Origin: Candidatus Vecturithrix granuli
Lineage (GTDB): Bacteria; Moduliflexota; Moduliflexia; Moduliflexales; Moduliflexaceae
Length of the DNA: 64,000 nt
NCBI GenBank assembly: GCA_000739535.1
Contig: DF820464.1
Span: 137,281-201,280 of the forward strand
Direction: 5' to 3'
The notes under the pieces were generated by a model. That model searched no databases. It worked only from the letters and a program-made list of their open reading frames with translations, and had not been told where the DNA came from. Shown in pieces: positions 5,015 through 10,003 of the stretch (position 1 is its first letter; every line of letters starts with the position of its first letter). A program made the position numbers and the translations under genes.

Positions 5015-5136
5015 TTTGGGTAGTGGTGAAATAGTAAGTGATGCGTTCCCTGAGCGAAGTCGAAGGGAACAGTGAGCGGCTCGTTTCGACTTCGCTCAAC
5101 GAGCGGGCATCACTTACTATTTCACCACTACCCAAA
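5015..5136. mobile_element. MITE-like element with 30-bp perfect terminal inverted repeats
   Basis: The arms 5015-5044 and 5107-5136 are perfect inverted repeats of 30 bp. Their outer part contains the motif GGTAGTGGTGAAATAGTAAG. The 62-bp core holds two smaller palindromes built from CCCTTCGACTTCGCTCA-like words and has no coding capacity. Related ends occur at 61-88 and, more diverged, around 9620-10003. No transposase for this family lies in the window. The element separates livF from the NACHT gene and supplies no obvious promoter. Confidence 0.8.
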
Positions 5137-5215: not shown

Positions 5216-8200
5216 ATGAGCCGCTATCGGGAAGAACTTCAAGAGCAGCGCGAGCAACTCAAACACAAACTCAACACAATGCTTCCTGATTCCCCGCAAG
5301 AACAGGAATTTCAGACCCAATTACAGGAAATCGAGCAGAAGTTGCAACAACTCGCGGTCTTTCCGCCCCCGCCTGAGCCTGATCCGCTGCGCGACGCGTA
5401 CCTGCGCCGGGTGTTGAAAACGACCAGCCGCCTGGAATTGAGTGGGATCGACCGCAAAGCTACCGGCACTGATGCGAATTCCTGCTTGAATCTGGAAGCG
5501 GTCTATACCGCGCTGCTGACCCTGAGCAGCGAGCATAAGGAAACCCTGCTCGCCTCCTTGCCGCGAGAGGAAGGACAGGCGCGGCGTCTGTCGGCTTTGG
5601 AGATGATGAACCGGCAGAAGCGCCTGGTGTTATTAGGCGATCCCGGCAGCGGCAAGACGACCTTTGTCAAGTTTGTGACCCTATGTCTGGCTGGCGCATG
5701 GCTGGATGACCCGCAGGCCAATTTCTTGCGGTTAACCGCGCCTTTGCCGGATGAGGAAGGCAAGCCTACGGACGAACCGCAGCCCTGGGAAGCCGGACTC
5801 TTGCTGCCGGTGCAGGTGGTGCTGCGAGATTTTGCGGCCAAAGGTTTGCCTGCGCCGGGGCAGCCGGCCAAAGCGAAACACTTGTGGGATTATATTGTCA
5901 AAAATCTGGAAGAAAACATGCTCAGTGCGTTTATTCCTCAGTTGCAACACTATTTTCAGGAACAGGGCGGATTGCTGCTGCTGGACGGACTGGATGAAGT
6001 GCCGGAGGCCGACCGTCGGCGCGGACAGATCAAACAGATTGTGGAAGATTTTACGCTTCTGTTTCCTGACTGCCGCATCCTTGTCACCAGCCGCACGTAC
6101 GCCTATCAAAAACAGGACTGGAAATTGGACGGCTTTCACGAGACGATTCTGGCGCCATTTTCCAAAGGACAGATCCGCTGTTTTGTGGATCGCTGGTACC
6201 AGCATATTGCTGCTGTCCGCAGCATGGATCGTGACAATGCGCAGGGACGGGCTGAAAGGTTGAAACAGGCCATATCGCGGAACGATCGCTTGTATAGCCT
6301 TGCAGAACGTCCCTTATTGTTAACGTTGATGGCCAGTCTGCACGCCTGGCGCGGCGGCAGCCTGCCCGAAAAGCGTGGGGACCTATACGCTGAAGCGACC
6401 GATTTATTGTTAGATTGGTGGGAACAGGATAAAGTCGTACGCAATGCGGACGGTCAGATTGTCGTGAGGCAGACCAGTCTGTCAGAACTGTTAAAGGTCG
6501 GCAAAGAGCGTGTGCAACAGGTGCTCATGTTTCTGGCATTTGAAGCCCATCAGGGCCAGCCCGACCTGGTCGGCACGGCTGATGTGCCAGAGGAGCGGCT
6601 GGTAGGGCAGCTCATGGATATCTGCCGCAATGATAAGGTTAATCCTGTCCTGTTGGTCGAGTATCTCAGCGACCGCGCCGGTTTGCTTGTGCCGCGAGGG
6701 GTGAAAGTCTATAGTTTTCCGCACCGCACCTTTCAGGAATATCTGGCCGCCTGTCATCTGGCTGATGAGGAGAATTATCCGGACACAGTTGTGCGTCTGG
6801 CGAGGGAAGACCCGAATCGCTGGCGCGAAGTGGTCTTGTTAGTCGGCGGTATCGGCAAAACGGCCATGCGCTGGTCGTTGGTCAATGAACTCTGTCCGTA
6901 TCCTCCTGAAAATGGGAAGCGTTTGCCTGTGAATGCCTGGAGCGCACTGCTGGCCGGGCAGGTGCTGTATGAATCATTGAGTATCGAACGCCTGAGTTCC
7001 GCCAACCAATCCTGCGTGGAGCGGCTGCGTGACTGGCTCACGGCGATTCTGACCGAACAGACACCCTTCGACTCCGCGCCCTTCGACTCCGTTCCCTTCG
7101 ACTCCGCGCCCTTCGACTCCGCTCCCTTCGACTCCGCTCCCTTCGACTTCGCTCCCTTCGACTCCGTTCCCTTCGACTCCGCTCAGGGAACGGGAACGGG
7201 AAAACCCTTCCCGGCAACTGAACGCGCCTTAGCCGGAAATATTCTCAACAAAACGGGCGATTCACGCGCGGGCGTGGGCTGCCGCCCCCTGAGCGGAGTC
7301 GAAGGGCGCGGAGTCGAAGGGCGCGGAGTCGAAGGGCGCGGAGTCGAAGGGCGCGGAGTCGAAGGGAGCATTCGGTTGCCGGATATTGTCTGGTGTGAGG
7401 TGCCGGAGGGGACGTTTTTGATGGGCAGTGATCCCCAGCAAGACCCGCCGGAAAAAATTTTGGAAGAATTTTTGGAACTCTATGATGTGCCTGATGACCA
7501 AATACCTGCTTTAAAGAAGCTGATTTGGTCAGAGCAGCCTCAACATGAAGTCCTGCTTTCCTCTTATCACATAAGCCGGTACGTTGTTACCAATGCGCAG
7601 TATTACACCTTTGTGACCAATGGCGGTTACACCGAGCGTTGGAAAGAATGCTGGTCTCCGGAAGGCTGGATCTGGAAGGAACAAGAAAATATTCGTGGAC
7701 CAGAAAGTTATAGAGAACCATTTGGAACAGGGAATCATCCGGTAGTAGGGGTATCCTGGTATGAGGCGTCAGCATTTTGTCAATGGCTCACGCTTCATCT
7801 GCGTGCGAGCGGCGATTTGACAGGCACGCAATTCATTCGCTTACCCACTGAGGCGGAATGGGAAAGAGCGGCGCGCGGCGAAGAAGGTCAAATTTATCCC
7901 TGGGGCAATGAGTTTGATCCAAACCGGTTAAATTACTATAAAATCGGATTAGGGGCAACCAGTCCGGTTGGGTGTTTCCCGTGCGGCGTGAGTCCCTGTG
8001 GATGTGAAGACATGGCAGGCAATGTGTGGGAGTGGTGTCAAGACTGGTATAATGATGAGTACTATGCGAAGAGTCCCCTGAAAGATCCTGCGGGGCCTGC
8101 ATCGGGCTCGGGCCGCGTGTTACGGGGCGGCTCCTGGAACGACGACGCCGGGAATTGCCGGTCGGCGGTCCGCCTCAGGGGCGGCCCCGGCGGCCGCGAC

Positions 8201-8239
8201 GACTTCGTCGGGTTCCGCCTCTTGAGGACGCCTTCGTAA
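5216..8239 (+). CDS. NACHT-type STAND NTPase with C-terminal FGE/C-lectin-like domain ending in a DGR-type variable region
   Basis: A protein of 1007 aa with these parts in order. Residues 1-40 are a charged coiled coil (EELQEQREQL). The NACHT NTPase has Walker A 'LLGDPGSGKTTF' near 139-150, Walker B 'LLLLDGLDEVPEADRR' near 251-266, sensor 'LVTSRTYAY', and the helical segments 'SLAERPLLLTLMASL' and 'FPHRTFQEYLAACHL' near 500. A linker at 616-717 is made of repeat-encoded pentads (PFDSA x8, then GVEGR x5). Residues 722-1007 form an FGE-sulfatase-like domain ('VPEGTFLMGSD', 'RLPTEAEWERAARG', 'GNVWEWCQDWY', 'GFRLLR'). The last 35 residues look like a DGR variable region. The start ATG 5216 has AAAAGGAG; the upstream in-frame extension lies in the MITE. 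Related STAND proteins act as regulated sensors or conflict proteins, and that role here is inferred. No partner gene is obvious. Confidence 0.85.
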   Translation: MSRYREELQEQREQLKHKLNTMLPDSPQEQEFQTQLQEIEQKLQQLAVFPPPPEPDPLRDAYLRRVLKTTSRLELSGIDRKATGTDANSCLNLEAVYTALLTLSSEHKETLLASLPREEGQARRLSALEMMNRQKRLVLLGDPGSGKTTFVKFVTLCLAGAWLDDPQANFLRLTAPLPDEEGKPTDEPQPWEAGLLLPVQVVLRDFAAKGLPAPGQPAKAKHLWDYIVKNLEENMLSAFIPQLQHYFQEQGGLLLLDGLDEVPEADRRRGQIKQIVEDFTLLFPDCRILVTSRTYAYQKQDWKLDGFHETILAPFSKGQIRCFVDRWYQHIAAVRSMDRDNAQGRAERLKQAISRNDRLYSLAERPLLLTLMASLHAWRGGSLPEKRGDLYAEATDLLLDWWEQDKVVRNADGQIVVRQTSLSELLKVGKERVQQVLMFLAFEAHQGQPDLVGTADVPEERLVGQLMDICRNDKVNPVLLVEYLSDRAGLLVPRGVKVYSFPHRTFQEYLAACHLADEENYPDTVVRLAREDPNRWREVVLLVGGIGKTAMRWSLVNELCPYPPENGKRLPVNAWSALLAGQVLYESLSIERLSSANQSCVERLRDWLTAILTEQTPFDSAPFDSVPFDSAPFDSAPFDSAPFDFAPFDSVPFDSAQGTGTGKPFPATERALAGNILNKTGDSRAGVGCRPLSGVEGRGVEGRGVEGRGVEGRGVEGSIRLPDIVWCEVPEGTFLMGSDPQQDPPEKILEEFLELYDVPDDQIPALKKLIWSEQPQHEVLLSSYHISRYVVTNAQYYTFVTNGGYTERWKECWSPEGWIWKEQENIRGPESYREPFGTGNHPVVGVSWYEASAFCQWLTLHLRASGDLTGTQFIRLPTEAEWERAARGEEGQIYPWGNEFDPNRLNYYKIGLGATSPVGCFPCGVSPCGCEDMAGNVWEWCQDWYNDEYYAKSPLKDPAGPASGSGRVLRGGSWNDDAGNCRSAVRLRGGPGGRDDFVGFRLLRTPS
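7064..7183 (+). repeat. In-frame tandem array, eight 15-nt units
   Basis: Eight consecutive units of CCCTTCGACTCCGCT (variants GCG, GTT and one TTC) run through the NACHT-FGE coding frame and encode (PFDSA/V)n. The unit is a multiple of three, so copy changes keep the frame. The same word occurs in intergenic repeats at 5041-5100 and 9680-9710. Confidence 0.95.
7292..7366 (+). repeat. In-frame tandem array, five inverted 15-nt units
   Basis: Five units of the reverse complement of the 7064-7183 repeat (CGCGGAGTCGAAGGG; the first begins AG) encode (GVEGR)n. With the upstream array, about 108 bases away, it can form a long mRNA or cruciform stem inside the gene. Confidence 0.95.
8125..8235 (+). 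other. Putative DGR variable region (VR) at the 3' end of the NACHT-FGE gene
   Basis: After 'VLRGGSW', nearly every codon ends in C (AAC GAC GAC GCC ... GTC CGC CTC ... GGC GGC CCC GGC GGC CGC GAC GAC TTC GTC). This is the pattern left when AAC-rich template codons are randomised at adenines. The G+C content jumps compared with the upstream domain. The position, the last codons of an FGE/C-lectin fold ending in GFRL, is the classic DGR target site. No template repeat or reverse transcriptase lies in the window, so it would be a remote target or a frozen relic. Confidence 0.65.
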
Positions 8240-9614: not shown

Positions 9615-10003
9615 CGGTTTTTTTGGTAATGGTTAAACGGGAAGCGACATCCGCTCGTTGAGCGAAGTCGAAACGAGTCTGGACTTGTTCCCTTCGACTC
9701 CGCTCAGGAAACGGTATTACTTAGCGTGAGTTCGGGATAAGAAAAACGCCGTAAAAGTAAAAGTCCCGAAGGGACGGGATATAGTAGCCCAGGGTGTCAG
9801 CCCTGGGGTCGAAAATCCGACGTGTGTGCCCTCCCCTCTCCGCATTCCGCCGCCGCTCGCGGCGGCGGAATGCGGAGAGGGGAGGGGGCAAACCGCTTTT
9901 TGTCCCAGGGCTGACACCCTGGGCTACCAGATTCCGCCCCGTTGGGGCTTAAAAGCTTATCCCGAACTCACGTTGCTTACCATTTAACCACTACCGTTTT
10001 TTG
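9615..10003. mobile_element. Composite repeat element with diverged MITE ends enclosing a nested palindromic element
   Basis: The outer ends, near 9618-9640 and 9976-10000, are diverged inverted copies of the GGTAGTGGTTAAATGGTAAG-like end seen at 5015-5136. Inside are CTTCGACTCCGCTCAGG-type words (9655-9710) and then the nested element 9725-9972. No ORF with coding features is present. This unit is most of the gene-free stretch 9592-10337; the remainder (10004-10337) holds a small inverted repeat (10094-10105 with 10162-10173) and the putative operators. Confidence 0.5.
9725..9972. mobile_element. Nested palindromic MITE-like element (three concentric inverted repeats)
   Basis: The 17-bp perfect terminal repeats are CGTGAGTTCGGGATAAG at 9725-9741 and its complement at 9956-9972. 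Inside them a second perfect pair, 24 bp, lies at 9784-9807 and 9904-9927. Innermost is a very G+C-rich palindrome of about 26-bp arms (9829-9854 with 9861-9886). The whole can fold into one long interrupted hairpin. It has no coding capacity. Confidence 0.8.

What the first reader, a model, noticed from the sequence alone, without database searches (positions are those of the whole stretch)
7064..7366. An intergenic repeat expanded in frame as a hairpin-forming linker inside the NACHT-FGE gene
Eight 15-nt units (7064-7183), about 108 bases, then five units in inverse orientation (7292-7366). The unit is the same CCCTTCGACTCCGCT word found in the non-coding repeats at 5041-5100 and 9680-9710. 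Its length keeps the frame and gives PFDSA and GVEGR pentads exactly between the NTPase part and the variable sensor domain. The inverted arrays could form a stem of up to 75 bp, promoting slippage and copy-number change. This makes a second, independent source of variability in the same protein.
Basis: seen in the sequence. Interest (0 to 1): 0.7.

Follow-up and report, generated by a model that had tools for sequence, protein, structure and literature searches.

The report
Palindrome-derived repeat linker in immune-like genes
A short palindromic DNA word scattered through this bacterium's genome has been copied in frame, as two opposed strings of repeats, into the linker between the switch domain and the sensor domain of a small family of NLR-like proteins, where it lengthens a floppy linker and sits exactly where two family members appear to have swapped halves.

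Summary
In detail: 8x15 nt (7064-7183), 108 nt, then 5x15 nt inverted (7292-7366), all in frame in a NACHT-FGE gene (5216-8239). The unit is the first 15 nt of a 20-nt palindromic word, CCCTTCGACTYCGCTCAGGG, with 161 exact copies in this genome (Candidatus Vecturithrix granuli UASB270), mostly in 116-122 bp intergenic MITE/REP-type elements. Three paralogues carry the same opposed arrays at the same two sites (upstream units 8, 5, 1, 7). One paralogue and two genes on a foreign contig are array-free and show that the 108-nt middle is ancestral coding sequence for one conserved helix. AlphaFold leaves both arrays unstructured. NACHT-half and FGE-half trees conflict, with the breakpoint at the arrays, so halves have been swapped there. 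A unit variant found nowhere else in the genome occurs in both opposed arms, which suggests exchange between arms. The 5-unit counts downstream cannot be trusted: perfect runs of 74-79 nt are what a k=67 short-read assembly leaves after collapsing longer arrays. In-frame palindromic insertions are already known (Rickettsia RPE, intragenic REPs). The opposed tandem expansion at the seam of a DGR-type NLR family is a new variant. Population variability and linker function are untested.

The parts
5216..8239 (+). NACHT-FGE gene, 1007 aa: NACHT at residues 137-329, FGE-sulfatase domain at 768-1004
   Evidence: ORF; Pfam; AAGGAG Shine-Dalgarno-like sequence just upstream
7064..7183 (+). Upstream array: eight 15-nt units CCCTTCGACTYCGNN, coding PFDSA pentads (residues 617-656)
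   Evidence: predicted unstructured, pLDDT <50 at 615-662
7169..7188 (+). Complete 20-nt palindromic word CCCTTCGACTCCGCTCAGGG, inner end of the upstream array
7184..7291 (+). 108-nt segment between arrays. The part from 7205 (PFPATERALAGNILNKTGDSRAGVG) is ancestral host coding sequence, one helix (667-680). QGTGT at its start is a derived junction shared by all array-bearing paralogues
   Evidence: empty-site paralogues; model
7287..7306 (-). Complete 20-nt palindromic word in opposite orientation, inner end of the downstream array; 118 nt from the upstream one, as in the paralogues
7292..7366 (-). Downstream array: five inverted 15-nt units, coding GVEGR x4 and GVEGS (residues 693-717); count is a lower bound
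   Evidence: pLDDT <50 at 691-718
5015..5136 (.). Intergenic 122-bp palindromic element (GTAG/CTAC near its ends) carrying the same words; member of the genome-wide family
9621..9724 (.). Second intergenic member of the family (end part at 9976-9995), split by another palindromic element (9725-9972)
8131..8239 (+). DGR-like variable 3' end of the FGE domain; 86-88% identical in DNA to three other genes while the rest of the FGE domain is ~65% identical to its paralogues

Best explanation
Fragments of a genome-wide palindromic (REP/MITE-type) repeat entered, in opposite orientations, two flexible sites either side of one conserved helix in the linker between the NACHT/helical part and the DGR-type FGE sensor of a small NLR-like family. 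They then grew there by tandem copying of a 15-nt part of the palindrome, tolerated because 15 nt keeps the frame and the product is a floppy linker. SHOWN: REP origin; in-frame opposed arrays at homologous sites in four paralogues with different upstream counts; array-free relatives; a phylogenetic switch between NACHT and FGE halves at the array; a private unit variant in both arms of this locus. INFERRED: the arrays are spread and kept uniform by recombination or template switching between arms and between paralogues, and they act as the identical-DNA joint at which paralogues exchange sensor halves. Protein function is probably limited to a longer disordered hinge.
For: 161 exact 20-mers in the genome, 0 in the reversed-pattern control. 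35 of 42 sampled single copies lie in no frame of 200 aa or more, and the other 7 are N-run or frame-end cases; they sit in ~116-122 bp palindromic elements. Nearly all head-to-tail 15-nt pairs of the word are in five genes: four NACHT-FGE and one HsdM. Shared derived junctions QGTGT and LSGVEG point to one origin; the empty site is seen in C14 and L082. The 13-nt core of all 13 units in this gene matches the genome-wide consensus while most of the gene differs by 32-50% from its paralogues, so the arrays are young or homogenised. Trees: NACHT half C9+L82b (100/100), FGE half C9+C18b (100/99); AU p 1.2e-5 and 9e-7. With array columns removed the breakpoint still maps to W nt 1991-2211, flanking the arrays (dlnL 68.8, permutation maximum 8.6), and a second triple gives 1810-2000. 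Arrays hold the longest identical tract in five of six paralogue pairs. The unit CCCTTCGACTCCGCG occurs only here: 2 upstream, 4 inverted downstream. Arrays modelled as unstructured, middle helical.
Against: Another swap boundary, at the N-terminal effector/NACHT junction (W nt ~138), has no arrays, so domain boundaries alone can host swaps. The W gene itself shows no clear breakpoint at its array. One pair (W-C18b) has longer identical tracts outside the array. The GCG variant could be recurrent mutation. No population data. No RAYT clearly tied to the family.
Confidence: 0.5

Rival explanations
1. Neutral repeat noise: palindrome fragments landed in an unconstrained linker and expanded by slippage; the arrays do nothing, and the swap breakpoint reflects the domain boundary only.
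For: Intragenic REPs in linkers are known and argued to be neutral (PMC3733652). The same 15-nt tandem mode occurs at REPs in other genomes. An array sits in a decayed HsdM gene too. An array-free swap boundary exists at the N-terminus.
Against: In this genome tandem arrays are almost confined to five genes, four of them one family, although most of the 161 complete copies lie elsewhere. A shared GCG variant in opposed arms needs exchange or recurrence.
Confidence: 0.35
2. One reading: array length is a tuned or phase-variable linker that adjusts NTPase activation, a second variability source beside the DGR.
For: Upstream counts differ among paralogues (8, 5, 1, 7). Location between NACHT and FGE; predicted disorder. 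Frame kept in all complete copies.
Against: No within-population data. Paralogue counts are not strain variation. Relatives exist without arrays. Downstream counts are assembly-limited.
Confidence: 0.12
3. RNA-level device: the long mRNA stem is cut by RNase III or slows translation between NACHT and FGE.
For: Predicted helix of 75 bp here, 85 in C9 and 31 in C18b, against 9-11 bp at empty sites.
Against: Stem length is not conserved; no expression data.
Confidence: 0.05
4. Assembly artefact created the arrays.
For: Short-read SPAdes k=67 assembly (PMC4312070). One paralogue contig ends inside the array. Perfect runs of 74-79 nt lie in the 67-81 nt window left by a collapsed k=67 cycle.
Against: Five loci with distinct flanks and distinct unit variants, all in frame. 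Upstream perfect runs are 56 nt or less and so fully resolved. Collapse would shorten arrays, not invent them.
Confidence: 0.03

Closest known systems
Intragenic GTAG/CGTC REPs (PMC3733652) and Rickettsia palindromic elements
   Same: Palindromic interspersed repeats inserted in frame in protein genes, often as dimers, in linkers or loops; sometimes two insertions in one gene
   Different: Here a truncated 15-nt part is tandemly amplified in two opposed arrays around one conserved helix, shared by paralogues; the inserted part lacks the GTAG ends of the intergenic element
PARCELs (PMC2996958)
   Same: In-frame tandem repeats whose DNA has dyad symmetry; variable number
   Different: PARCEL unit is 25 residues and amphipathic; here 5-residue pentads, predicted unstructured, derived from a non-coding repeat
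DGR-diversified NACHT-CLec/FGE targets in multicellular bacteria (PMC10907252)
   Same: NACHT fused to a diversifiable C-terminal FGE/CLec sensor; domain shuffling between paralogues; MITE-like repeats near the loci
   Different: There the MITE-like arrays replace DGR parts at the loci; the sections read describe none inside the target reading frame at the domain seam
Repeat-number variation in fungal NLRs (PMC4986451, seen in a search list only; otherwise general knowledge)
   Same: Internal repeats in NLR-like proteins that can vary in number
   Different: Those are ligand-binding repeat domains; here a linker without predicted fold

Membership tests
REP/MITE palindromic repeat family | Short palindrome in high copy, mainly intergenic | tested here: met
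   161 exact 20-mers; sampled copies intergenic; 116-122 bp palindromic element
GTAG-tagged REP (RAYT-mobilised) | GTAG tag at one end of the element | tested here: inconclusive
   Intergenic elements run GGTAGTGG...CCACTACC, but the gene arrays contain only the inner word without GTAG
GTAG-tagged REP (RAYT-mobilised) | Associated tyrosine transposase flanked by the repeats | tested here: inconclusive
   12 Y1_Tnp matches; only 1 of 10 inspected loci has the word nearby, and that match contains a stop
Rickettsia palindromic element-like in-frame insertion | Interspersed palindrome inside an intact ORF without breaking frame | tested here: met
   Open frames in W, C9 and C18b; empty sites known. 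Works like RPE; sequence kinship to RPE not tested
PARCEL | 25-residue amphipathic repeat unit | tested here: not met
   Unit is 5 residues (PFDSA/GVEGS), predicted unstructured
DGR-diversified NACHT target | NACHT plus C-terminal FGE/CLec domain with variable 3' region | tested here: met
   Pfam; VR-like 3' ends
DGR-diversified NACHT target | Cognate template repeat and reverse transcriptase | tested here: inconclusive
   RVT_1 gene beside paralogue C14; no template repeat found with the variable region, N gap beside the RT
Phase-variable/contingency VNTR | Copy number differs among cells or strains | not testable with these tools
   Only paralogue differences available; no strain series or reads

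The most novel reading that the evidence does not exclude
Domesticated palindromic repeats act as a built-in recombination joint in a bacterial NLR-like family: arrays at the NACHT/FGE seam supply identical DNA that lets divergent paralogues swap sensor halves, on top of DGR hypermutation within the sensor.
Probability: 0.22. Interest if true: 0.75.

Novelty: new variant of a known kind. Interest (0 to 1): 0.5.

Why it matters
If right, it shows non-coding repeat DNA becoming protein linker and recombination seam in a bacterial relative of eukaryotic NLR immune receptors, giving module shuffling beside targeted hypermutation. It also gives concrete loci where array-dependent recombination can be measured. 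At the least it is a warning that unit counts in such arrays from short-read genomes are censored at the k-mer length.

Tried and rejected
Invertible switch: flipping the 108-nt middle between the arms gives two stops in this gene, so a functional flip is unlikely. Frame selection setting the 15-nt unit: the same 15-nt mode occurs at REPs in other genomes. Mobile 108-nt cargo: rejected by array-free paralogues. Viral spread: no tandem match in viral contigs. Same arrays in the three other held genomes of the phylum: none; 2 of the other 384 genomes searched have short ones. Literature on the word or on PFDSAQG: nothing relevant.

Full report
Observation. The arrays are present as described: eight 15-nt units at 7064-7183, 108 nt, five inverted units at 7292-7366, inside one open frame 5216-8239 with NACHT and FGE-sulfatase domains. 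The inner unit of each array is a complete 20-nt palindromic word, CCCTTCGACTCCGCTCAGGG; the others are its first 15 nt. The transcript folds into a 75-bp helix (z -17.6).

Organism. The assembly has 8,384,694 bases in 21 contigs, which equals Candidatus Vecturithrix granuli UASB270 (candidate phylum KSB3) in PMC4312070 (8,384,694 bp, 21 scaffolds, 38x coverage, SPAdes k 67).

Names used below. W is the window gene. C9, C18a, C18b and C14 are paralogues on those contigs of the same genome (L039, L040, L041, L073). L82a and L82b are the two genes of L082.

The word genome-wide. There are 161 exact copies and none of the reversed control. Of 42 sampled sites, none is convincingly inside a gene: 35 lie in no frame of 200 aa or more, and the other seven are N-run artefacts or open frames in which the word lies close to an end. 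The copies lie in ~116-122 bp palindromes, GGTAGTGG...CCACTACC. Allowing any spacing up to 30 nt, head-to-tail pairs of the word are confined to four NACHT-FGE genes and an HsdM gene, plus one intergenic doublet and one 32-nt-period site. The 15-nt mode itself is not peculiar to genes or to this genome: 2-3-unit versions occur in two unrelated genomes, outside any convincing gene.

The family. Three paralogues have the arrays in the same places, the two complete words always 118 nt apart: C9 (5 upstream / 5 downstream), C18b (1/5), C18a (7/at least 3, contig end), against 8/5 here. The C14 paralogue and both genes of L082 lack them, as in L82b: LTEQ-QPADT-PFPAVERALAGNILAQLGDPRLGVG-VHEDG-LPDIVW. 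So two insertions flank 25 ancestral residues. QGTGT after the upstream array and LSGVEG at the downstream one are shared by all four, favouring one origin. L082 is labelled Rhodobacteraceae; its genes sit among the KSB3 ones, so mis-binning or transfer is likely (inference).

Age and homogenisation. Outside the variable 3' end and the N-terminal domain, W is about 50-70% identical in DNA to its relatives, region by region, yet the 13-nt core of all 13 units in this gene still equals the genome-wide consensus. The arrays are therefore young or homogenised. The variant unit CCCTTCGACTCCGCG occurs in the whole genome only at this locus, twice in the upstream arm and four times in the inverted arm. 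Exchange between the opposed arms explains this most simply; recurrent mutation is not excluded.

Half-swap. In NACHT-half trees C9 is sister to L82b (100/100); in FGE-half trees C9 is sister to C18b (100/99). The alternatives are rejected (AU p 1.2e-5 and 9.3e-7); these groupings were chosen after seeing the identity profile, so the p values are optimistic. With array columns removed, the best breakpoints for the two key triples are W nt 1991-2211 (dlnL 68.8) and 1810-2000 (dlnL 49.9), against permutation maxima near 8.5; the arrays are at W nt 1849-1989 and 2065-2157. A third triple breaks about 140 nt upstream (1654-1711), and several break at the N-terminal domain border near nt 138, where there are no arrays. 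Thus the swap at the seam is shown; that the arrays caused it is inference, supported by their being the longest identical tract in five of six pairs.

Copy number. Perfect period-15 runs are 74, 79, 79 and 75 nt in the downstream and HsdM arrays, all inside the 67-81 nt window that a k=67 graph leaves when a longer perfect array is collapsed; upstream runs are 56 nt or less and thus resolved. So upstream counts 8, 5, 1, 7 are real differences between paralogues, while five downstream is a minimum. The window argument is my own reasoning about de Bruijn graphs, not a result from reads.

Protein. The AlphaFold model (12 sequences, mean pLDDT 69) has pLDDT below 50 at 615-662 and 691-718, i.e. 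both arrays, around a helix at 667-680. The alignment is shallow, so this is weak support for disorder.

DGR context. The 3' ends of three other FGE genes are 86-88% identical to that of W, with differences concentrated in codons ending in C. An RVT_1 gene lies beside C14. No template repeat was found, so DGR activity here is likely but not shown.

Comparison. In-frame REPs and RPEs, often dimers and in linkers, are described (PMC3733652). DGR-NACHT targets, their domain shuffling and MITE-like repeats near them are described (PMC10907252). I found no report of opposed, tandemly expanded REP fragments inside the reading frame at the NACHT/sensor seam, within an open-licence library only. Hence: a new variant of a known kind.

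Noticed in passing
L074 6092-6664 (G000:C13:104430-104540): A type I restriction locus with truncated HsdR and HsdM split into two overlapping frames carries GVEGS x5 in frame inside the N6_Mtase domain: an in-gene array of the same word in an unrelated gene.
   Followed up: partly
L073 1250-2374 (minus strand): Reverse transcriptase gene (RVT_1) next to the array-free NACHT-FGE paralogue, separated from it by an N gap; probable DGR whose template repeat was not found.
   Followed up: partly
window 9621-9996: One palindromic element (9621-9724 with 9976-9995) is interrupted by a second, different palindromic element (9725-9972): nested repeat insertion.
   Followed up: no
L082 1-7119: 7.1-kb contig labelled Rhodobacteraceae carries two opposed NACHT-FGE genes close to the KSB3 ones; probably mis-binned or transferred.
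   Followed up: partly
G000:C20:462067-462140 (in L210): A 32-nt-period repeat containing TTCGACTTCG, different from the 15-nt arrays.
   Followed up: no
window 5216-5360 (W nt ~138 of the gene): A second recombination boundary at the N-terminal effector/NACHT border among the paralogues.
   Followed up: partly
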